Assembly: GCA_007132865.1 (NCBI GenBank)
Contig: SLNU01000310.1
Span: 1-13,207, forward strand
Direction of reading: 5' to 3'
Origin: Bacteroidales bacterium
GTDB lineage: Bacteria; Bacteroidota; Bacteroidia; Bacteroidales; UBA7960
DNA length: 13,207 bases
Each line of letters begins with the position of its first letter. Position 1 is the stretch's first letter. Under the pieces are notes generated by a model, which was given only the letters and a program-made list of their open reading frames with translations, was not told the origin of the DNA and did not search any database. Below are positions 1,058 through 10,886 of this stretch, piece by piece. Made by a program: the position numbers and the translations under genes.

Positions 1058-1201
1058 TATGGTTCTCGCTGGTTCTGATTCTCGCCGGACCTGGTTCCCG
1101 CTGGCCCTGCTTCCAGTCGGACCTGGTTACCGCCGTCCTTAGGTCCCGCTGGCCCTGCTTGCAGCCGGCCCTGGTTCTCGCCGGCCCTGGTTACCGCCGG
1201 C
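1058..1201. repeat. Nine-unit 16-bp degenerate tandem array
   Basis: Nine consecutive units of exactly 16 bp can be laid out from 1058. Plus-strand examples are CCTGGTTCCCGCTGGC (1090), CCTGCTTGCAGCCGGC (1154), CCTGGTTCTCGCCGGC (1170) and CCTGGTTACCGCCGGC (1186). The left units are more diverged. The array begins 3 bases after the stop codon of the iron-binding protein gene and ends 3 bases before the permease start, so it occupies 144 of the 150 intergenic bases. No hairpin-plus-T-tract terminator is visible in it. Confidence 0.9.
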
Positions 1202-1204
1202 CCT

Positions 1205-2344
1205 TTAGTTCCATCCCGCCCTGTTGAAGATGAACATGGCTTCCTGCAGCCATGGCTCCAGCTTGCTCAGGGGGATGGTGTCCTCCCGGAATGTGCCCCA
1301 TGATTGCAATAGTTCGGGCCATTCCACCTGCTGCGAAACGGGGTATTCGTAATTATCCGACGATAAAACCCTTTGGGCTTCGTCGCCGAGCAAAAATTCG
1401 ATGAGCCTGCGGGCATTGTCGCTGTTGGGGGCATGGGCCGCGATGCCGATCCCGCTGATGTTCACGTGGGTGCCGCGGCCCTGCTGGTTCGGGAAGAAAA
1501 TACCCGCCTGTGCAGCCACCTGCCGCTCTTCCGCATTGGGCGAGTTGAGCAGCAATCCCATATAATAGGTATTCACGATGGCCACGTCTCCGAGTCCGGC
1601 AGCCATGGCCTTGACCTGGTCGCGGTCGTTGCCCTGCGGACTGCGGGCCATATTCGAAACGAGCCCGCGCGCCCAGTGTTCGGCTTGTTCTGGTCCGACA
1701 GCCGCGACCACAGCGGCCATCAGGGTCTGGTTGTAGTGGTTCTGGGAGGAGCGCACCAGCACACGTCCATGCCAGGCCGGTCCGGCCAGGTCTTCATAGG
1801 TAGAGAGGTCAGTGGGGTCGACCCGGTCCTTATGGTACACGATCACCCTGGCCCGCTTGGTGAGGCCGGTCCAATACCCCTGCGGGTCACGGAAGGCGGG
1901 CGGCACGGTTTGGCGGACCAGCTCCGAGTCTACCGCCTGCAGCAGTCCTGTGGCCGCGGCACTTACGAGCCGTCCCGCATCAGCGGTGATCAGCAAGTCG
2001 GCCGGGGAGGAGGGGCCCTCCAGCCGCATGCGGTTGATCAATTGGTCGGTGTCGGCCTTGATCAGGTTCACCCGGATGCCGGTCTGTTCGGTGAAGGAGC
2101 GGAACAGGGCTTCGTCGGACTGATAATGGCGGCCGGAGTAGACGTTTACCTGGTCGGTGGGGGTGGAGCAGGAGGTCAGTAATGCTGATGAAAAAAGAAA
2201 TGCGGTCAAGGTTGCGAATGTTAGGGTCCTGCCCGCAATCTTGATGGTCCTGCCCGTAAGCTTGAAGGCCGACACTGAACGGTTCCGGGACTTGCCTGAA
2301 TGGTCAGGGTCTGCGATGGGATGGGTAGAGCGAATCATGGACAT
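1205..2344 (-). CDS. Ferric-iron ABC transporter substrate-binding lipoprotein (FbpA/FutA family)
   Basis: Periplasmic binding protein that captures Fe(III) and hands it to the adjacent permease. With the ATG at 2344 it is 379 residues. A hydrophobic stretch ends in a lipobox (LLTSC, Cys59), so the mature protein should be a lipoprotein. VYSGRHY at 68-74 matches the first iron-ligand region of FutA/FbpA proteins, and the paired tyrosines at 260-261 (NTYYMG) match the conserved iron-binding tyrosines. The frame stays open to a TTG at 2377, but a -7 promoter box at 2366-2373 lies downstream of that codon, so ATG 2344 (or 2338) is preferred. A GTG about 24 residues before the lipobox Cys would give a shorter, more usual signal peptide. 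The region before the hydrophobic core is long and contains a 21-bp duplication. The permease follows after a 150-bp repeat-filled gap. Family confidence is high; the start is uncertain. Confidence 0.88.
   Translation of the reverse strand: MSMIRSTHPIADPDHSGKSRNRSVSAFKLTGRTIKIAGRTLTFATLTAFLFSSALLTSCSTPTDQVNVYSGRHYQSDEALFRSFTEQTGIRVNLIKADTDQLINRMRLEGPSSPADLLITADAGRLVSAAATGLLQAVDSELVRQTVPPAFRDPQGYWTGLTKRARVIVYHKDRVDPTDLSTYEDLAGPAWHGRVLVRSSQNHYNQTLMAAVVAAVGPEQAEHWARGLVSNMARSPQGNDRDQVKAMAAGLGDVAIVNTYYMGLLLNSPNAEERQVAAQAGIFFPNQQGRGTHVNISGIGIAAHAPNSDNARRLIEFLLGDEAQRVLSSDNYEYPVSQQVEWPELLQSWGTFREDTIPLSKLEPWLQEAMFIFNRAGWN
2225..2266. repeat. 21-bp direct duplication inside the signal-peptide region
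   Basis: Two adjacent 21-bp copies, 2225-2245 and 2246-2266, both begin GGTCCTGCCCG and differ at only a few later positions. On the minus strand they encode LTGRTIK and IAGRTLT, just before the hydrophobic core of the iron-binding lipoprotein's signal peptide. A diverged third copy may lie at 2204-2224. Confidence 0.7.
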
Positions 2345-2365
2345 TCTATGGGAGATTTGAATGCC

Positions 2366-2373
2366 CAAAATTA
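2366..2373 (-). promoter_or_regulatory. Candidate -7 box for the iron-binding protein operon
   Basis: TAATTTTG on the minus strand fits the Bacteroidota -7 consensus TAnnTTTG. Transcription would start near 2360, leaving a short leader to the ATG at 2344. No convincing -33 TTG element at the usual spacing was found, so this is tentative. Confidence 0.35.
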
Positions 2374-2510
2374 TCAATAATTAGTCTAAATAAGTACTGC
2401 AATAGTGAAAACCCCTACTAATGGGGATGCTGCATTATAGCGATGGAGATACTGGATTATTCCCTGAACCTGGTCCGCTGGCCCAGTTAACGGCTGGTTT
2501 TACCGGGTGT

Positions 2511-2759
2511 CCGGCTCGCTGTCCTATTTGCGGCCCGCATCACTGTCCGGCTGCGGCGCTCCTCGCCGTCTGGTTCGCGGCGCTCTTCATTGCTCAGTTC
2601 TGTCCGGCGCACGATCCGGCTAGCTGCCTGGTTGGCGGCCTTAATCGCTGTCCTCTTCAGCGCCCGGCTCATGGCCCTCCCCGCCGTCTGGTTCGCTGCC
2701 TTCTTCGCCGTCCGGTTCAAAACCTTCTTCGTTGTCCTCTTCACTATCCGACGCATCGC
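2511..2759. repeat. About 21-unit 12-bp degenerate tandem array crossing a stop codon
   Basis: Reading the plus strand, units of 12 bp follow one another from 2511 to 2759 with one 10-bp and one 11-bp exception. Examples are CCGGCTCGCTGT (2511), CTGGTTCGCGGC (2570), CTGGTTGGCGGC (2628), CTGGTTCGCTGC (2688), CTTCTTCGCCGT (2700) and CTTCTTCGTTGT (2724). The rightmost 117 bases or so encode the acidic C-terminus of the lytic transglycosylase. The same period continues without a break through its stop codon (2641-2643) into the intergenic region. Bases 2461-2510 contain further related but irregular sequence. Confidence 0.85.
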
Positions 2760-3708
2760 CTTTTACTTCGGGTGCAGATAACGGAATCTTGATCTCGTAA
2801 CGTTTCCGGGAGCGGTTGGGGAGTTCGTAATCACGAAGCCAGGGGTTCAGGAGGCGAAGTTCCTTATAGGTGGTATTGTGCTGCAGGGCGAAGGCCACCA
2901 GGTCTGGAATGGTGGTGTCCACCACCATGGTGGTGTAATTGAAGGGTTCATAAAGGTCCTTGGGGCGGAAGTGGAACCCGGAACCTGCAGGATCAGTGAA
3001 GATGGTTTTCACGGCCAACAAGCGGAACATATACCTGGAGGTTTCCTCATTCAGGTGCAGGTCGTAATACCCCCCGACGCGCTGGGTGTTCATTACGCGT
3101 GAAAGTCTGGCATTGCCGATATTGTAGGCCGCAGCGGCCAGGGTCCAGGAGCCGAACCTTTCCCTGGCGTTCAGCAGGTATTTGCACGCGGCTTCCGTTG
3201 CCTTTTCCACATGGTAGCGCTCATCTATATGGGCATTCACCTCCAGTCCGAATTCCCTGCCGGTCCCCTCCAGGAATTGCCAGAACCCGGTGGCTCCCGC
3301 AGGGGAGACCACGTTCATCAGTCCGCTTTCAATCAGCGCTAGGTATTTAAAATCATTGGGAACCCCATGTTTTTCGAGTATGGGTTCAATGACCGGAAAC
3401 CAGCGGTTGGCCCGCTTGAAGAACAGCATGGTCTGGGATTGCCAGTAGGTGTTTACCAGCAGTTCCCTGTCATAGCGCTCCCTGATGTCCCACAGATGCA
3501 TCGGTACCGGTTCGCCCGCAAAACTCAGGGTGTCCGGGATGTGCAGGGCAAAGACCCCGTATTGCTTTTTGAAGGAATCGATGAATACCTGGTCTTCCTC
3601 AGCCGCTTCCCGCCAAAAGGAGAATAAATGGATGGACACAATGCCGGCAATGAGCAATCCGACAAAAATCCAGGAACGTTTAATCTTTAAGCTGAGGTTC
3701 TGAAACAT
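2641..3708 (-). CDS. Membrane-anchored lytic murein transglycosylase (MltD-like) with acidic repeat tail
   Basis: Cleaves the MurNAc-GlcNAc bond of peptidoglycan, forming 1,6-anhydro ends, during wall remodelling. The 355-residue protein starts with a basic stretch and one hydrophobic segment (about 13-30), an uncleaved anchor or signal peptide facing the periplasm. The SLT/GH23-type domain spans roughly 100-240. It has the catalytic glutamate in ALIESGL (Glu127), then GATGFWQF (138-145) and AAAAYNIGNA (191-200), which is the usual order for this fold. Residues 259-310 resemble a diverged LysM peptidoglycan-binding module. The last 38 residues are strongly acidic, including EPDGEEGS, EPDGGEGH and EPGAEEDS in tandem, and are encoded by a 12-bp DNA array that continues past the stop. 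It is the first of three minus-strand genes, followed after about 300 bp by the iron-uptake pair; cotranscription is uncertain. Function is assigned with confidence, the exact transglycosylase subfamily less so. Confidence 0.9.
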   Translation of the reverse strand: MFQNLSLKIKRSWIFVGLLIAGIVSIHLFSFWREAAEEDQVFIDSFKKQYGVFALHIPDTLSFAGEPVPMHLWDIRERYDRELLVNTYWQSQTMLFFKRANRWFPVIEPILEKHGVPNDFKYLALIESGLMNVVSPAGATGFWQFLEGTGREFGLEVNAHIDERYHVEKATEAACKYLLNARERFGSWTLAAAAYNIGNARLSRVMNTQRVGGYYDLHLNEETSRYMFRLLAVKTIFTDPAGSGFHFRPKDLYEPFNYTTMVVDTTIPDLVAFALQHNTTYKELRLLNPWLRDYELPNRSRKRYEIKIPLSAPEVKGDASDSEEDNEEGFEPDGEEGSEPDGGEGHEPGAEEDSD

Positions 3709-3882
3709 GGCAAGCTGGGATTTTATATCTGTAATCGTAAATTATAATCAGTATAAATTAGTCCTGGGTGCTACACGGAAAACCTTGAAAAATTGCCCAA
3801 GGCCTTGATTGTACAATGGTTCACAAAAAAAAGCATTTCCGGGCTGTGGTTGTGAATAAATGAACAGTTAGGAAAAATTATT

Positions 3883-3890
3883 TAGCTTTG
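3883..3890 (+). promoter_or_regulatory. Candidate -7 promoter box of the aldehyde oxidoreductase gene
   Basis: TAGCTTTG is an exact match to the Bacteroidota -7 consensus TAnnTTTG. Transcription would start near 3896, giving a leader of about 36 bases. The -33 region (3859-3862, AATG) is a poor match. The divergent gap 3709-3931 holds no gene; its lytic-transglycosylase side is AT-rich but shows no clean -7 box. Confidence 0.5.
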
Positions 3891-3915
3891 TAACCGGTTT
3901 AAATTAAACACTTTT

Positions 3916-3923
3916 AAAGGAGA
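3916..3923 (+). promoter_or_regulatory. Strong Shine-Dalgarno sequence of the aldehyde oxidoreductase gene
   Basis: AAAGGAGA lies 8 bases before the ATG at 3932. Bacteroidota genes often lack a clear Shine-Dalgarno, and none of the other genes in this window has one this good. It supports the chosen start and suggests high expression. Confidence 0.7.
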
Positions 3924-3931
3924 TTTAGTAT

Positions 3932-6091
3932 ATGAACATTGCGGAAATTAAAGCACAGCGAAAACGGTTGAAAGAGGTGGAATATACCCCCACGCCTCTG
4001 GACAAGGGATATACGGACAAGGTCTTGTATATCAACGTTGGTAATAATGAAGTAAAGGAAAAGGACGTACCCCCTGTGATGAAAGAAAAATTCATCGGCG
4101 GGAAAGGCTATGGCCTTCGCCTTCTCTGGGATGCGACAAAGCCTGATACCAAGTGGAACGACCCGGAAAATGAGATCATCATTTCCTCCGGACCGGTGGG
4201 TGGCATCACCCAGTATTCGGGTGCCGGGAAATCCCTGCTGGTTACCATCTCCCCCCAGACCGACTCTGTGATGGATTCCAACGTGGGTGGGTTTTTCGGA
4301 CCCTTTCTGAAGTTCTCAGGATTCGATGCCTTAGAACTGCAGGGCAAGGCCGAAAAGGATGTGGTCATCCTGATCGATGGAAAAAACCGCAAGATCGAGA
4401 TATTCGAAGACCCAGGCCTGAGCGTGGATACCCACCTGATGGCCGAGGAGCTGACCGAAATGTTCGCCGACGATGAAAAGGATGCAAGGAATATCGGCAT
4501 TGTTTCTACCGGCGCGGCAGCTGACCACTCCCTGCTTGGGATGGTTAACTTCACCTTCTATGACATGAAGCGCAAGAAGATCAGGCTGAAGCAAGCCGGT
4601 CGCGGCGGCATCGGCACTGTGATGCGTGACAAGAAGATCCGGGCCATCGTGGCAAAGGTTGAAGGGGTAACCGGTAACCTGAACAATGTGGCAGACCTGG
4701 AGACCATCAAGGAAACCGGCCGTTCCTTCCAAAAGGAGATGCGCGAACTGGATGACGACCAGTGCCAGATGAAGAGAAAGGGCACCGCCAACATCCTGAA
4801 TGTAATGAACGACTATGACCTGCTGCCCACCCATAATTTTAAGTTCGGCAGTCATGACGACGGACTGAAGATTCATAGCAATGTGTTCCGCGACAAGTAT
4901 TTCACTCAGAATGTTCCCGACGGATGCTGGATCGGCTGTGCGATGTCCTGCGCCAAGGGCGTGGATGACTTTGAGCTGCAGACCGGCCCCTACAAAGGGC
5001 AGAAGGTGATTGTAGACGGACCCGAATATGAGACCGGAGCCGGACTGGGTTCCAACCTGGGGATTTTTGACCCGGAAGCCATTATTGAGCAGAACTTCTA
5101 TTGCGATACTTACGGTATTTGTACCATCACCTGGGGTACCGTCGTGGCCTTCATCATGGAGTGCTATGAGAATGGCATTTTGAACAAGGAGCGGACTGGC
5201 GGACTCGAACTGACTTTCGGGAATAAGGACGCGGCGCTTGATTTGCTGCACCAGCTGGCCGCTGGAAAGGGATTCGGACTTGTAGCCGGACTCGGTGTCA
5301 GGAAGATGAAGGAGTTGTTTGTGGAGAAGGGATGGGGCGATGCGAAGTTCCTGAATGATATCGGAATGGAGAACAAAGGGCTGGAATACTCCCAGTATGT
5401 TTCCAAGGAAAGCCTTGCCCAGCAGGGCGGGTACGCGATGACCAACAAAGGTCCGCAGCATGACGAGGCCTGGCTGATTTTTATGGACATGGTGAACAAC
5501 CAGATTCCCTCTTTTGAGGACAAGGCCGAGGCCCTGCATTATTTCCCGATGTTCCGTACCTGGTTCGGACTGGTCGGATTGTGTAAGCTTTGCTGGAACG
5601 ACGTGGTCCCCCCGGAAAATGCACTGGAGGAAGAACCGCACAAGATTCCCAAACATGTCGCCAACTACGTGGCTATTTATGAAGCCGTTACCGGCCAGCC
5701 GTTCAGCAAGGAAGAAATGATTCGCCAGAGCGAACGGGTGTACAACTTCCAACGGGTATTCAACCTGCGCCGCGGATTCGGCAAGCGCATCCATGATGCC
5801 CAGCCATACAGGGCTGCAGGTCCCGTGACCGTCGAGGAATACGAGTCAAGGGCAGAGCGCTATGACAAGCAACTCAAGGAAGACGTGGGCTTTGATCCGG
5901 CCGGAAAATCCACCGTGGAAAAAATGGCCGTATTGCGCAAATACCGCGAGGGCCGTTACGAGCAACTGCTCGATTCTGTGTACCAGCGCCGCGGATGGAC
6001 CAAGGATGGCATCCCGACCCTGGAGCATTTGAAGGATCTGGGCATGGACCTCCCGGAAGTGTTGGAGGTTGTCAAGCCCCACCTGAACTAA
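3932..6091 (+). CDS. Aldehyde:ferredoxin oxidoreductase family tungsten/molybdenum enzyme
   Basis: Family members hold W or Mo on a bis-pterin cofactor beside a [4Fe-4S] cluster and oxidise aldehydes to acids (or reduce acids) with ferredoxin, in the cytoplasm of anaerobes. The 719 residues show the family landmarks in order: FIGGKGYGLRLLWD (54-67), GGFFGPFLKFSGFD (119-132), RGGIGTVM (224-231), a cysteine cluster (332, 336, 340), GPEYETGAGLGSNLG (363-377), KGPQHDE (506-512) and GLCKLC (549-554), which probably supplies the fourth cluster cysteine. Two things are unusual. The cluster spacing is C-x3-C-x3-C instead of the C-x2-C-x3-C of the Pyrococcus enzyme. The protein is also about 100 residues longer than typical, with an N-terminal extension of about 25 residues and a charged insert around 636-676 before the conserved QRRGW end. 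It stands alone, with its own promoter, ribosome site and terminator. No pterin-maturation or ferredoxin gene is adjacent. The substrate cannot be read from sequence. Confidence 0.92.
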   Translation: MNIAEIKAQRKRLKEVEYTPTPLDKGYTDKVLYINVGNNEVKEKDVPPVMKEKFIGGKGYGLRLLWDATKPDTKWNDPENEIIISSGPVGGITQYSGAGKSLLVTISPQTDSVMDSNVGGFFGPFLKFSGFDALELQGKAEKDVVILIDGKNRKIEIFEDPGLSVDTHLMAEELTEMFADDEKDARNIGIVSTGAAADHSLLGMVNFTFYDMKRKKIRLKQAGRGGIGTVMRDKKIRAIVAKVEGVTGNLNNVADLETIKETGRSFQKEMRELDDDQCQMKRKGTANILNVMNDYDLLPTHNFKFGSHDDGLKIHSNVFRDKYFTQNVPDGCWIGCAMSCAKGVDDFELQTGPYKGQKVIVDGPEYETGAGLGSNLGIFDPEAIIEQNFYCDTYGICTITWGTVVAFIMECYENGILNKERTGGLELTFGNKDAALDLLHQLAAGKGFGLVAGLGVRKMKELFVEKGWGDAKFLNDIGMENKGLEYSQYVSKESLAQQGGYAMTNKGPQHDEAWLIFMDMVNNQIPSFEDKAEALHYFPMFRTWFGLVGLCKLCWNDVVPPENALEEEPHKIPKHVANYVAIYEAVTGQPFSKEEMIRQSERVYNFQRVFNLRRGFGKRIHDAQPYRAAGPVTVEEYESRAERYDKQLKEDVGFDPAGKSTVEKMAVLRKYREGRYEQLLDSVYQRRGWTKDGIPTLEHLKDLGMDLPEVLEVVKPHLN

Positions 6092-6096
6092 GATCT

Positions 6097-6147
6097 GGTT
6101 GCGCACACGCGCGAACTGCCTGCCCGGCTCCCTGCGCACGCGCAACC
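6097..6147. repeat. GC-rich inverted repeat just after the aldehyde oxidoreductase stop
   Basis: GGTTGCGC (6097-6104) is the exact inverse complement of GCGCAACC (6140-6147), with a few extra inner pairs possible. The loop is long and no T-tract follows, so it is at most a 3'-end stabilising hairpin. The element TGCGCAC also recurs directly inside it. Confidence 0.5.
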
Positions 6148-6186
6148 CGCACGCTCGGCCATTGCCGAAATTGGTGTAAAAATTAA

Positions 6187-6225
6187 GGGCCGCCCGGAAG
6201 CAATTCCGATGGCGGCCCTGGTTTT
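6187..6225. terminator. Bidirectional rho-independent terminator between convergent genes
   Basis: GGGCCGCC (6187-6194) pairs with GGCGGCCC (6211-6218), and inside it CGGAA (6195-6199) pairs with TTCCG (6204-6208) around a GCAA loop, with a two-base AT bulge. Reading plus, TGGTTTT follows the stem. Reading minus, TTAATTTTT follows it, the better T-tract. It sits between the aldehyde oxidoreductase (ends 6091) and the prenyl synthase (ends 6313 on the other strand) and can stop both transcripts. Confidence 0.8.
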
Positions 6226-6250
6226 ATGCTACGGCCCTGGTTTTTCAGTG

Positions 6251-6318
6251 CCTGCGGTCACGTGGTCCAAATCCTGCGGTCCGTGTGACTCAGTGCCTGT
6301 GGTCGCGTGCGACTAATG
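6251..6318. repeat. Three-unit 22-23-bp degenerate tandem array at the prenyl-synthase 3' end
   Basis: The units are 6251-6272 (22 bp), 6273-6295 (23 bp) and 6296-6318 (23 bp). They start CCTGCGGTCACGTG, CCTGCGGTCCGTG and CCTGTGGTCGCGTG. The last unit includes the stop codon (6313-6315) and final His codon of the prenyl synthase. Immediately left, GGCCCTGGTT occurs twice (6214 and 6233), partly within the terminator. Confidence 0.7.
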
Positions 6319-7290
6319 CTTGCGTTCAAGCAGGTTTTTAGCCAGCGTGGCCACGCCTTCCTTTTGTTCCGGCGCGACAGCAATGCCATCGAGGTGCTCG
6401 AAGGCCAGGCGGTAATACTCCTCCATTTTCTGTATTGCAAGCTCGCGAATACCCAGTTGCTCATAGATCTCCTTTACCTGTTTCACCTTCTCTTCCGGGT
6501 CGGTTATCCCTCCTGAAAATGCTTTATCCAGCAGGTCCATTTGCTCGGGCCCTGCCAGCTCAAATGCCTTGATCGTTAGCCAGGTTTTTTTGTTGGCGAT
6601 GATGTCGCCCCCGCTTTTCTTGCCGAACACAGCCTCATCACCATATACATCCAGCCAGTCATCCCGCAATTGAAATGACAGTCCGACACACTCTCCAAAC
6701 CGATAAAGTTTTTGCGCATCATCGTCGGATGCCCCGGCAATGATTGCACCGGTTTTCAGACATGCGGCAGGCAGTACGGCCGTTTTCAGGCGGATCATCT
6801 CCAGATAGTCGGCCTCGCTGACATGCTTCGTGGATTCAAAGTCCATGTCGTATTGCTGACCCTCACAGACCTCGATGACGGTTTGGTTAAATAGTTCCAT
6901 GATCTTTCTGAGGTGCTGATCGGGGACTTCAAGCATATGCTTGTAAGCCAGTGCGAACATCACGTCGCCGGAGAGGATGGCCGCGTTGGGTCCCCATTTG
7001 GCATGGACGGTCTGCTGGCTGCGACGCAGCGGGGCATTGTCCATGATGTCGTCATGCATCAGCGTGAAATTATGGAACAGCTCCAGTCCGAGGGCCGGGG
7101 AAACGGCCTTATCCACGTCCCCGCCAAAGAGCTGGCAACCCAGCAGGGTCATCACGGGCCGCATGCGTTTGCCGCCATTCTTCAGGCAATAGGCCACCGG
7201 TTCATACAATCCGCCCGGCTGCCTGTCAAGTCCCATCCCGGCAATGTGTGCGGATATTATTTCCTGTAATTTGTGAAGGCTGTTGGACAT
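6313..7290 (-). CDS. Polyprenyl (geranylgeranyl/farnesyl-type) diphosphate synthase
   Basis: Condenses isopentenyl diphosphate with allylic diphosphates by a Mg-dependent trans-prenyl transfer in the cytosol, supplying precursors for quinones, carotenoids or longer prenyl carriers. The 325 residues fit the family. GGKRMRP (39-45) binds isopentenyl diphosphate. The first aspartate-rich motif is DDIMD (80-84), followed by the arginine pair at 89-90. The second is DDWLD (210-214), and the GKKSGGDI..NKK segment (223-235) is also typical. The Phe five residues before the first motif (Phe75) suggests a short product, C15 to C20, but chain length is an inference. The start codon ATG (7288-7290) lies within a 7-bp tandem array that also contains the upstream rmlA stop codon. 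No promoter box was found in the array, so transcription probably reads through from rmlA. The stop codon sits in another array, and the shared terminator lies about 95 bp beyond. Confidence 0.92.
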   Translation of the reverse strand: MSNSLHKLQEIISAHIAGMGLDRQPGGLYEPVAYCLKNGGKRMRPVMTLLGCQLFGGDVDKAVSPALGLELFHNFTLMHDDIMDNAPLRRSQQTVHAKWGPNAAILSGDVMFALAYKHMLEVPDQHLRKIMELFNQTVIEVCEGQQYDMDFESTKHVSEADYLEMIRLKTAVLPAACLKTGAIIAGASDDDAQKLYRFGECVGLSFQLRDDWLDVYGDEAVFGKKSGGDIIANKKTWLTIKAFELAGPEQMDLLDKAFSGGITDPEEKVKQVKEIYEQLGIRELAIQKMEEYYRLAFEHLDGIAVAPEQKEGVATLAKNLLERKH

Positions 7291-7469
7291 TGGGTGTTGC
7301 TGTTGGTTATTGGCTATTGGATATTGGCTGTTGGCTGTTGGGTGTTGGGTGTTGGCTGTTGGCTATTGGTTATTGGCTGTTGGCGGTTGGCTGTTGGCTA
7401 ATGTCCGATGTCTAATATCTAATTATCCAATATCCAATGTCCAATGTCTAATTGCTGTTGGCTATTGGG
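7281..7469. repeat. 27-unit heptanucleotide tandem array bridging two genes
   Basis: On the plus strand, 27 units can be laid end to end from 7281 to 7469; 25 are exactly 7 bp, one is 6 (7295-7300) and one is 8 (7420-7427). Two unit types occur. TGTTGGC/TATTGGC-like units fill 7281-7398 and 7456-7469, and a block of CAATGTC/TAATATC-like units fills 7399-7455. The minus-strand start codon of the prenyl synthase is in unit 2 (CATTGGG, 7288-7294). The rmlA stop codon (7462-7464) spans the junction of units 26 and 27. There are no spacers, so it is not a CRISPR array. Confidence 0.93.
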
Positions 7470-8334
7470 GCTCATCGGATAGCATTTTCAGGAGGTAGTT
7501 GCCGTAGCCGCTTTTTAGCAGGGGTTGGGCGACTTTTTCGAGTTGGGCTGCATCGATGAATTCCATGCGGTAGGCGACTTCTTCAATGCAACCGATCTTT
7601 AGGCCTTGTCGGTCTTCGATGACCTGGACGAACTGGGCGGCTTGTATGAGGGATTCGAAGGTGCCGGTGTCTAGCCAGGCCGTGCCGCGGCTCATCGGTG
7701 CCACTTTCAGCCGTCCCTGCTCCAGGTAATGACGGTTTACGTCGGTGATCTCGTATTCTCCACGGGCACTCGGACGAATGTGTTTGGCCACTTCCACCAC
7801 GCTGTTGTCGTAGAAGTATAGTCCGGGCACGGCATAGTTCGACTTGGGCTTTTGTGGCTTTTCTTCTATGCTCAGGGCCTTGAATTGCTCGTCAAACGCC
7901 ACGACGCCATAACGGGAGGGATCCGACACATGGTAGGCAAATACGACACCCCCGTCGGGCTCGGTATGCGATTGCAGGGTTTCGATAAAACCGGAGCCGT
8001 AAAAAATATTGTCGCCCAATATCAGGGAGACCTTTTCCCTGGCGATAAATTCCTCCCCGATCACAAACGCCTGCGCCAGTCCGTTGGGCTCTTTCTGCAT
8101 GGCATAGCTGAAATTGCATCCAAGCGGCGCTCCGTCACCCAGCAGGTGCACGAAATGGGGGAGGTCCTGGGGCGTGGATATAATCAGGATGTCACGGATG
8201 CCGGCCATCATCAGCACCGAAAGCGGGTAATAAATCATGGGTTTGTCATACACCGGCATGAGCTGCTTGCTCATGGCCAGGGTGATGGGGTACAATCTGG
8301 TGCCGGAGCCTCCGGCCAAAATTATGCCGTGCAT
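7462..8334 (-). CDS. rmlA: Glucose-1-phosphate thymidylyltransferase
   Basis: Joins dTTP and glucose-1-phosphate to give dTDP-glucose and pyrophosphate, the first step toward dTDP-rhamnose and other deoxysugars of surface polysaccharides. The 290-residue length is standard for the enzyme. The nucleotide-binding loop [11 protein letters not shown] (6-16) is followed by the conserved [18 protein letters not shown] (21-38). LILGDN (104-109) supplies the metal-binding aspartate (Asp108), IEEKP (156-160) is the sugar-nucleotide signature, and GTAWLDTGT (216-224) is also diagnostic. No rmlB, C or D is visible in the window, so the sugar pathway must be encoded elsewhere. The start ATG at 8334 fits the family N-terminus. 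It lies after a roughly 100-base leader whose promoter overlaps the end of the upstream exporter gene. The last codons and stop come from the 7-bp array. Confidence 0.96.
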
Positions 8335-8419
8335 AGGAAAAAGGTGTAGTGGACCCAGGCAGGTCCGTTTATGAAAGAACTGTCAACAAACGGGATGGCA
8401 GTTGAAAACGATCTGTGTG

Positions 8420-8434
8420 ACCCTTTCGCAGGGT
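8420..8434 (-). other. Small hairpin in the exporter 3' end / rmlA leader
   Basis: ACCCT (8420-8424) and AGGGT (8430-8434) form a 5-bp stem with a 5-base loop. It lies 10 bases after the exporter stop and near the predicted rmlA transcription start. A second short inverted repeat, GGACC/GGTCC, occurs at 8351-8366. Neither has a T-tract, so a terminator function is doubtful. Confidence 0.35.
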
Positions 8435-8439
8435 TATCG

Positions 8440-8471
8440 CAAACTTACTGCTTTATGGCAAATATCCCAAA
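8440..8471 (-). promoter_or_regulatory. Promoter for rmlA embedded in the end of the exporter gene
   Basis: On the minus strand TTTG (8468-8471), then 20 bases, then TAAGTTTG (8440-8447) fits the Bacteroidota -33/-7 pattern, including the spacing. The TAA of the -7 box is itself the stop codon of the exporter gene. Transcription would begin near 8433, about 99 bases before the rmlA ATG. Confidence 0.5.
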
Positions 8472-10790: not shown

Positions 10791-10827
10791 GGGCAATAGG
10801 ATCAGTTGGCTGATTTTTTGGAAGCTG

Positions 10828-10835
10828 CAAAGGTA
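10828..10835 (-). promoter_or_regulatory. -7 box of the exporter gene
   Basis: TACCTTTG on the minus strand matches TAnnTTTG exactly. The predicted start near 10821 gives a leader of about 31 bases to the ATG at 10790, which agrees with that start. The -33 region is weak. Confidence 0.55.
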
Positions 10836-10857
10836 GTTTTTTTAGCTAAAAAAGCCG

Positions 10858-10865
10858 TACCTTTG
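10858..10865 (+). promoter_or_regulatory. -7 box of uvrA
   Basis: TACCTTTG on the plus strand matches TAnnTTTG exactly. The predicted start near 10872 leaves about 15 bases before the uvrA ATG. No clear -33 element is present. Confidence 0.55.
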
Positions 10866-10886
10866 CAGGTTCAATTTTTTTCACAG

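What the first reader, a model, noticed from the sequence alone, without database searches (positions are those of the whole stretch)
1058..7469. Four minisatellite arrays of different period, all anchored at stop codons of minus-strand genes
Arrays with 12-, 16-, 22-23- and 7-bp units meet the stop codons of the transglycosylase (2641), iron-binding protein (1205), prenyl synthase (6313) and rmlA (7462) genes. Of the five minus-strand genes with visible 3' ends, only the exporter (8445) lacks one. The promoter-bearing gaps 3709-3931, 8335-8444 and 10791-10886 show no arrays. The units differ in length and mostly in sequence, so this is not one dispersed repeat family but a repeated tendency to expand local sequence just behind stop codons. 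Possible meanings include a 3'-UTR function (transcript stability, termination, spacing), a repair or replication process that generates tandem copies at transcript ends, or neutral slippage tolerated only there.
Basis: partly seen in the sequence, partly recalled or inferred. Interest (0 to 1): 0.78.

Follow-up and report, generated by a model that had tools for sequence, protein, structure and literature searches.

The report
Repeat arrays at bacterial gene borders
Short DNA repeats fill the gaps between several genes of an uncultured Bacteroidota bacterium and often run over the stop codons; one of them belongs to a repeat family that has multiplied in a close relative's genome and lies next to genes in a preferred direction.

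Summary
The arrays are real. Two are strong: a 16-mer (1060-1204) and a 7-mer (7278-7468). Two are degenerate but non-random. "Anchored at stop codons" is half the truth. Both strong arrays fill whole gaps, from one gene's stop to the next gene's start. The heptamers contain the rmlA stop (CCAATAG) and the polyprenyl-synthase start (CCAATGT). Against a close relative (G043, long blocks 91-93% identical), arrays 2, 3 and 4 differ in length, and two stop codons have shifted because repeats run across them. Array 4 is dispersed: 27 further places in G043. In the 20 fetched, runs within 40 bp of a start point one way (12 of 12); at stops the direction is mostly opposite (8 of 12). In 3.0 Mb from other Bacteroidota, array edges touch stops more often than random placement predicts (41 seen, 22.7 expected); starts show no excess. 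The bias is limited to touching and absent in some genomes. The same polarity is published for other heptamers in Xanthomonas and Nostoc. Best reading: lineage-specific tandem expansions, confined by coding sequence, tolerated across ORF 3' ends. A 3'-UTR function is not needed; the cause of the polarity is open.

The parts
1060..1204 (-). Array 1: nine copies of a 16-mer (sense CCAGGGCCGGCGGTAA-like) filling the gap between the solute-binding-protein stop (1205-1207) and the permease start (1052-1054)
   Evidence: TRF score 129, autocorrelation z 9.8 at period 16; no BLAST match in 47 family genomes, and its place is not covered in G043, so its history is unknown
2475..2760 (-). Array 2: degenerate 24/12-bp repeat running from the coding tail of the transglycosylase (2641-2760) through its stop (2641-2643) into the gap
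   Evidence: z 5.9 at period 24; not found by TRF. In G043 the segment matching 2551-2728 is 37 bp instead of 178 bp, and its ORF ends at a different stop, in sequence that is non-coding in the window
6236..6315 (-). Array 3: three to four degenerate copies of the polyprenyl-synthase gene's own last codons plus stop ([D/E]-R-[K/R]-H-stop) with spacers; period 45 = two units of 22/23
   Evidence: z 5.1 at period 45; G043 has one copy and ends D-R-R-H-stop at the place equivalent to the window copy farthest from the gene (my reading of the alignment)
7278..7399 (-). Array 4, start arm: heptamers (TTGGNTR on + = YANCCAA in sense); holds the polyprenyl-synthase start codon in unit CCAATGT (7287-7293)
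   Evidence: TRF score 132; BLAST family in G043; sequence
7400..7452 (-). Array 4, second arm: heptamers TTGGACA/TTGGATA/TTAGATA in sense, opposite in direction to the start arm
   Evidence: TRF score 48; similar two-arm order at other G043 loci
7453..7468 (-). Two sense units CCAATAG CCAACAG between the second arm and the rmlA gene; the TAG at 7462-7464 is the rmlA stop codon
   Evidence: sequence; G043 also ends rmlA in CCAATAG
6313..7290 (-). polyprenyl synthase gene (PF00348) between arrays 3 and 4
7462..8334 (-). rmlA-like gene, nucleotidyl transferase (PF00483)
2641..3708 (-). lytic transglycosylase-like gene (PF01464) whose tail is made of array 2
1205..2338 (-). solute-binding protein (PF13343), stop abuts array 1

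Best explanation
These are minisatellite-like tracts that grow and shrink by tandem duplication in gaps between genes, and they end at coding sequence because selection stops them there. Arrays 2 and 3 are local duplications that include the 3' ends of their genes. The repeat tract carries stop codons, so the ORF closes at the first in-frame stop of the tract and the array looks 'anchored' at a stop (different stops shown by comparison with G043; which state is older is inferred). Array 4 belongs to a heptamer family (TTGGNTR) that has been amplified and dispersed in this lineage and in several co-directional gaps of G043 runs from stop codon to start codon (shown). At start codons the start-codon-free direction (CCAA in sense) is kept, probably because the other direction puts TTG codons into the leader (inferred). 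At stops the G-rich strand tends to be the sense strand (shown in relatives, cause unknown). How units spread from locus to locus is not known; copying of long blocks is not supported.
For: Length differences and different stops, window against G043: gap between rmlA and prenyl synthase 171 bp against 66 bp; array 2 segment 178 bp against 37 bp; array 3 54-68 bp longer, depending on the alignment. 27 further places of array 4 on 26 contigs of G043, with only 40 of 76 candidates scored. In G043 arrays run from stop to start in the co-directional gaps of L255, L258, L268 and L272, and to within 8 bp of both stops in the convergent gap of L262. Start-proximal runs are C-type in 12 of 12 (G043) and 2 of 2 (G013) within 40 bp, and mixed further away. 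Permutation test and per-gene-end rates favour stops. Arrays inside genes keep the frame: period divisible by 3 in 42 of 53, against 60 of 184 between genes. None of the 8 (of 20) family loci in which rmlA and prenyl synthase lie within 150 bp has a TTGG array there; one (L236) has a small unrelated array. Two of 20 loci have unrelated arrays at the prenyl-synthase stop (L237 a 16-mer, L242 an 8-mer). Neighbouring units are identical more often than chance (0.25 against 0.20, P 0.01).
Against: Variation among heptamers is concentrated at positions 5 and 7 and, less, 6; TTGG is 96-99% conserved over 490 units in G043 (the unit finder is anchored on this motif, which inflates the figure). Plain slippage plus random mutation does not predict that. 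The G-rich sense strand at stops (38 against 9, control 350 against 441, P 1e-6) is not explained by tolerance alone; part of it could come from the few coding bases that overlapping arrays include. A null model that keeps arrays 50 bp away from starts still leaves an excess at stops (33 against 21.5). The stop excess is not general: G001 and G002+G005 show none (P 0.60, 0.80).
Confidence: 0.66

Rival explanations
1. RNA function: the two-armed arrays fold into long hairpins in the transcript between two cistrons and set termination, stability or translation of the flanking genes.
For: Array 4 in sense folds better than shuffles (-28.5 against a mean of -18.6 kcal/mol, z -3.2, 0 of 200). Opposite arms meet at 10 junctions within 36 bp in the fetched G043 loci.
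Against: The arms are not mirror images (no P below 0.5 in 11 arrays tested). I saw no such second arm in arrays 1-3. Of 8 relatives with the same gene pair close together, 7 have a gap without an array and one a small unrelated one. No Rfam family matches in the window at gathering score.
Confidence: 0.12
2. Binding sites: each 7-bp unit (TTGG fixed, later positions freer) is a site for a protein on DNA or RNA, so the arrays are regulatory clusters, as MacGregor proposed for TAACTGA repeats before start codons.
For: Position-specific conservation in G043 and G013; arrays reach start codons; a proposal in print for other heptamers (PMC4679880; abstract, passages and section 12 seen).
Against: The four-unit pattern is absent from 36 of 47 genomes of the family. 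Relatives with the same gene pair lack TTGG arrays there. Window and G043 differ 2.6-fold in gap length at the same place.
Confidence: 0.12
3. Templated synthesis, for instance by a reverse transcriptase or a telomerase-like enzyme, that lays units at breaks between genes.
For: Shared degenerate vocabulary without shared order (17 arrays); G-rich strand often reading away from gene borders; head-to-head joints TTGG-CCAA.
Against: No reverse-transcriptase domain (PF00078) found in G043 or G001, the two genomes with most pattern hits of those searched; G013 has one, and all are drafts of unknown completeness. The start-side polarity has a simpler reason (no start codons in that direction).
Confidence: 0.05
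4. Assembly artefact.
For: 8 of 19 sampled G001 contigs have an array within 6 bp of a contig end, so repeats do disturb assembly.
Against: The 27 further G043 places lie on 26 different contigs, with genes called beside the arrays in the 20 fetched. The syntenic G043 locus carries a shorter array of the same family.
Confidence: 0.03

Closest known systems
G-rich heptameric repeats GGGAATC of Xanthomonas and GGGGA(C/T)T of Nostoc (Rehm et al. 2015, PMC4692102; sections 13 and 16 and passages seen)
   Same: 7-bp unit, dispersed, mostly non-coding, inverted copies occur, length differs between close relatives; close to stops on the coding strand (overlapping stops included) and close to starts on the non-coding strand, irrespective of ORF direction
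   Different: Different unit; ours has longer runs (up to 31 units), is degenerate at certain positions, mostly has GG only (quadruplex formation was not tested), and can fill a whole gap with two arms made of different units
TAACTGA direct repeats of Beggiatoaceae, cyanobacteria and some Bacteroidetes (MacGregor 2015, PMC4679880; abstract, passages and section 12 seen)
   Same: Heptamers between genes, next to start codons and overlapping upstream stops; long arrays in some Bacteroidetes that close relatives lack; contigs that end in repeats
   Different: One fixed unit; no two-arm polarity described in the parts seen
STRR heptanucleotide repeats of heterocystous cyanobacteria (recalled; tandem heptanucleotides of Calothrix are mentioned in a passage of PMC4692102)
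   Same: Tandem heptanucleotides; dispersed and lineage-specific (recalled)
   Different: Not compared by sequence here
MIRU/VNTR minisatellites of mycobacteria (recalled)
   Same: Arrays between genes of an operon, variable in number (recalled)
   Different: Units of 40-100 bp (recalled); not tested here
Tandem repeats of Borg elements (PMC9879509; listing and start of abstract seen)
   Same: Pervasive, fast-changing tandem repeats that arise independently
   Different: Archaeal extrachromosomal elements; not compared by sequence

Membership tests
Intergenic heptamer repeat families (Xanthomonas/Nostoc type) | 7-bp tandem unit, dispersed over many intergenic places | tested here: met
   27 further places in G043, the 20 fetched ones lying mainly between called genes or between a gene and a contig end; 220 overlapping pattern hits in G043 against 9 for the backward control pattern
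Intergenic heptamer repeat families (Xanthomonas/Nostoc type) | G-rich strand is the coding strand near stops and the non-coding strand near starts | tested here: met
   Starts within 40 bp: 12 of 12 and 2 of 2. Stops within 15 bp: 8 of 12 in G043 and 2 of 2 in G013. Other arrays in relatives at stops: 38 against 9. At stops the rule is a tendency only
Intergenic heptamer repeat families (Xanthomonas/Nostoc type) | G-tracts able to form quadruplexes, preference for four units | tested here: inconclusive
   Runs have up to 31 units, so no preference for four. 88 of the 335 units in the 15 commonest types carry GGG, the rest GG; no quadruplex prediction was run
TAACTGA repeats | unit TAACTGA | tested here: not met
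   Unit is TTGGNTR
REP/MITE-like mobile repeats | conserved length and block copies | tested here: not met
   No shared unit order between 17 arrays beyond chance (mean longest shared run 2.34 against 2.32, P 0.36); lengths vary. Terminal repeats were not searched for
Arrays 1-3 as members of the array-4 family | heptamer unit TTGGNTR | tested here: not met
   Periods 16, 24/12 and 45/22; array 1 has no match in 47 genomes
Retroelement-made arrays | reverse transcriptase in the genome | tested here: inconclusive
   None found in G043 or G001, one in G013; drafts of unknown completeness, and the window's own genome is not held

The most novel reading that the evidence does not exclude
Some Bacteroidota have a DNA end-extension process that adds G-rich 7-8-bp units to 3' strands pointing from gene borders into the gap, like telomere-type healing of breaks. 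The ends are then joined, leaving head-to-head arrays (TTGG...CCAA) that fill the gap from stop to start and supply the stop or start codon. Each lineage would have its own unit: TTGGNTR here, AGTTGAAR in G001.
Probability: 0.06. Interest if true: 0.88.

Novelty: new variant of a known kind. Interest (0 to 1): 0.52.

Why it matters
Heptamer arrays with the same strand rule at gene borders have been noted in Xanthomonas and Nostoc without a function being found. Seeing the rule again with other units in Bacteroidota, together with lineage-specific explosions (631 hits of one 8-mer pattern in G001, 0 in G043) and arms of different units, turns a curiosity into a testable general question: what makes and orients these arrays? 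It also suggests that repeat growth across ORF ends can move stop codons between close relatives, a route for protein tails to change. And it may be why some drafts, such as G001, break at gene borders (8 of 19 sampled contigs end in an array).

Tried and rejected
Rejected: block copying of arrays (no shared unit order); fold-back origin of the two arms (arms not mirrored); known RNA family in the window (none at gathering score); simple avoidance of promoters as the cause of the stop excess (it persists when arrays are kept 50 bp away from starts; 38 of 130 arrays were dropped for that test); background strand composition as the cause of G-rich sense strands at stops (control 350 against 441). 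A reverse transcriptase is disfavoured, not excluded.

Led nowhere: paper searches (no paper; only the paper already known was to the point); one search gave mostly unrelated uses of 'STRR'. None of the rows listed (20, 15, 15, 0 and 10 rows; more papers matched than were listed) deals with TTGGNTR arrays by its title; this is weak evidence, and subscription journals are missing. A control outside the Bacteroidota was not run.

Weak points and results against the reading: genes in relatives were called with a simple script of mine (best-scoring ORFs, codon model), so stops are exact but starts are not. A second start rule (longest ORF) gave 39 of 116 stops against 23.2 and 21 of 126 starts against 21.8, with weaker P for single genomes (G004 0.0035, G006 0.012, G007 0.0115, mixed set 0.085). 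With the first rule G004, G006 and G007 are clear (0.0005, 0.0005, 0.0045), the mixed set borderline (0.047), G001 and G002+G005 negative. In co-directional gaps 55 of 99 arrays lie nearer the stop (47 of 92 with the second rule), hardly more than half. G003 was not sampled. The strand bias at stops weakens with distance (48 against 20 within 60 bp) and is small in G004 (3 against 2) and G006 (4 against 2). In G043 I fetched 20 of the 27 further places, all found by similarity to array 4. The backward control pattern for the 8-mer also hits G001 (206 times), as it must, since it overlaps the array in another phase.
Full report
What the window is. The window encodes an ABC permease, a solute-binding protein, a transglycosylase, an aldehyde ferredoxin oxidoreductase (plus strand), a polyprenyl synthase, an rmlA-like nucleotidyl transferase, an MMPL exporter and UvrA (plus strand). 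Its nearest relatives among genome contigs with record titles are Bacteroidales/Bacteroidetes metagenome genomes (57-62% for the polyprenyl synthase, L001-L007). That these come mostly from soda lakes is my reading of the isolate codes, from memory. No whole genome is held for the window. A family search found G043, a draft of a close relative: 94-96% protein identity over the parts of the polyprenyl synthase that it holds. Its matching DNA blocks are 83-100% identical, the two long ones 93% and 91%.

Check of the observation. TRF finds arrays 1 and 4 but not arrays 2 and 3, even at score 30. Autocorrelation against 300 dinucleotide shuffles each supports all four and gives nothing for the three promoter gaps. 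Some coding stretches reach similar z values at periods 21, 18 and 9, so arrays 2 and 3 are real but not outstanding. The wording 'anchored at stop codons' is incomplete. Array 1 reaches from directly behind one stop to 5 bp before the next start. Array 4 holds the rmlA stop in a unit CCAATAG and the polyprenyl-synthase start in a unit CCAATGT. Array 2 is best preserved inside the coding tail of the transglycosylase.

Comparison with the close relative. Array 3: the last codons and stop of the polyprenyl synthase in G043 (D-R-R-H-TAA) lie at the place equivalent to the window copy farthest from the gene. The window has 54-68 extra bases, depending on the alignment, made of further degenerate copies of that stretch, and its ORF closes at the first copy (E-R-K-H-TAG). 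Array 2: the window segment 2551-2728 (178 bp) corresponds to 37 bp in G043. The G043 ORF runs on into sequence that is non-coding in the window and ends ...EPDSDAGRI-stop. Array 4: the gap is 171 bp in the window and 66 bp in G043, both made of the same heptamers. Array 1 has no match in any of 47 family genomes; in G043 the matching contigs stop at window positions 121 and 2043, so its place is not covered. Which state is older cannot be told from two genomes.

Array 4 is a dispersed family. BLAST of the window against G043 gave 27 further places on 26 contigs (40 of 76 candidates scored). A four-unit pattern TTGGNTR has 220 (overlapping) hits in G043 and hits in 10 of the other 46 genomes of the family. 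It hits 20 of 198 genomes drawn from the phylum, G043 included; the other 19 have 1 to 16 hits. Over 490 units in G043 the positions TTGG are 96-99% conserved, while position 5 takes all four bases, position 7 is mainly A or G, and position 6 is T in 82% (the finder is anchored on this motif). The order of units is not shared between 17 arrays beyond chance, but neighbouring units are identical more often than chance (0.25 against 0.20, P 0.01), as expected from local duplication. Another relative, G001, has its own family: an 8-mer pattern AGTTGAAR with 631 hits, 0 in G043, and hits in 5 of 47 genomes. There it occurs with a 7-mer (GTAGGTA-like) that lies next to stops, and 8 of 19 sampled contigs have an array within 6 bp of an end.

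Position and direction in the family. I read 20 of the 27 places plus the syntenic one. In co-directional gaps the array can run from stop to start (L255, L258, L268, L272), and in a convergent gap (L262) nearly from stop to stop; in the two divergent gaps it lies in mid-gap (L275) or touches one start (L265). Other places are at greater distance from one or both genes or end with the contig. Runs within 40 bp of a start have CCAA in sense in 12 of 12 (G043) and 2 of 2 (G013). Within 15 bp of stops, 8 runs have TTGG in sense and 4 have CCAA (G043), and 2 of 2 have TTGG (G013). Farther away the direction is mixed. Opposite arms meet head to head (TTGG then CCAA) at 10 junctions within 36 bp in G043 and once in the window; the reverse order was seen once, across 68 bp between two such modules (L261). 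In most two-armed arrays the arm next to a start is rich in TTGGYTR and the other arm, which faces a stop where that gene is seen, in TTGGACW or TTGGGTA; L263 is reversed. In the window two CCAA-type units lie between the second arm and the rmlA gene. The arms are not mirror images. CCAA arms made of YARCCAA have no ATG, GTG or TTG, whereas TTGG arms carry TTG in each unit and TGTCCAA arms carry ATG (sequence). Selection on the leader can therefore explain the start side; this is inference.

Do arrays cluster at stops in general? I used 213 loci and stretches: 140 from G001, G002 and G004-G007, plus 73 loci from other Bacteroidota, 3.0 Mb in all. TRF arrays of score 50 or more were placed against genes called by script. 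130 arrays lie in closed gaps. They touch 41 of 123 stop boundaries (22.7 expected from random placement in the same gap, 0 of 2000 permutations) and 18 of 137 start boundaries (21.2 expected). Taken alone, G004, G006 and G007 are clear (P 0.0005-0.0045), the mixed set is borderline (P 0.047), and G001 and G002+G005 show nothing. In co-directional gaps 55 of 99 arrays lie nearer the stop, so the effect is one of touching, not of general nearness. Per gene end: 50 of 1820 stops and 20 of 1842 starts. By distance class, first array met per gene end, stops against starts: overlap 20 and 5, 0-12 bp 25 and 14, 13-40 bp 12 and 17, 41-100 bp 23 and 36. In arrays that touch stops the sense strand is G-rich in 38 against 9, compared with 350 against 441 in array-free gaps. 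The polyprenyl-synthase stop carries unrelated arrays in 2 of 20 other family loci (L237, L242), which suggests that such arrays arise repeatedly.

How it most likely works. Tandem duplication makes and unmakes short tracts in gaps. Inside genes most surviving tracts have periods divisible by three (42 of 53, against 60 of 184 between genes). Across the 3' end of an ORF any period can be tolerated, because the first in-frame stop in the tract closes the ORF. That gives arrays that overlap stops, tails that change, and an excess at stops but not at starts. In lineages with an amplified unit the tracts expand until coding sequence or promoters stop them. The steps from duplication to fixation are inferred, and the strand rule at stops and the spread of units are unexplained.

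Comparison with what is known. Rehm et al. 2015 (PMC4692102; sections 13 and 16 and passages seen) report for G-rich heptamers of Xanthomonas and Nostoc that most repeats downstream of ORFs lie within 0-50 bp of stops on the coding strand, overlapping stops included, and that upstream of ORFs the largest share lies within 0-50 bp of starts on the non-coding strand, irrespective of ORF direction. They found no function. MacGregor 2015 (PMC4679880; abstract, passages and section 12 seen) reports TAACTGA heptamers before starts and overlapping upstream stops, and long heptamer arrays in a few Bacteroidetes that relatives lack. The finding is thus a new lineage and a new, two-armed variant of a known kind.

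Verdict. Interest is moderate; it would be high if the strand rule proves to be a DNA-level process. On checking, confidence in the best explanation was lowered from 0.68 to 0.66 because of the co-directional-gap result.

Noticed in passing
L116, L118, L120, L121, L125, L126, L130, L131 (stretches of G001): 8 of 19 sampled contigs of this draft genome have a 7-, 8- or 16-bp array within 6 bp of a contig end, several of them next to a stop codon; the arrays probably break the assembly and are undercounted.
   Followed up: partly
window 6187-6225: Inverted repeat GGGCCGCC...GGCGGCCC followed by TGGTTTT downstream of the aldehyde ferredoxin oxidoreductase gene, conserved in G043: looks like an intrinsic terminator between convergent genes.
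   Followed up: no
window 2225-2265: Two copies of a 21-bp repeat near the 5' end of the solute-binding-protein gene, frame-keeping.
   Followed up: no
window 1060-1204 and 6214-6242: Array 1 and the terminator region beside array 3 share the string GGCCCTGGTT, although their periods differ.
   Followed up: no
L107, L221, L232 (G004) and L183 (G007): Longer units with GAGCCTGTC-like or GTCATCCCGAGCG-like strings recur at several places and look like other dispersed elements, not like the heptamer arrays.
   Followed up: no
window 3932-6091: Aldehyde ferredoxin oxidoreductase gene (PF01314/PF02730) in a Bacteroidota, also present in G043 within a block of 91% DNA identity.
   Followed up: no
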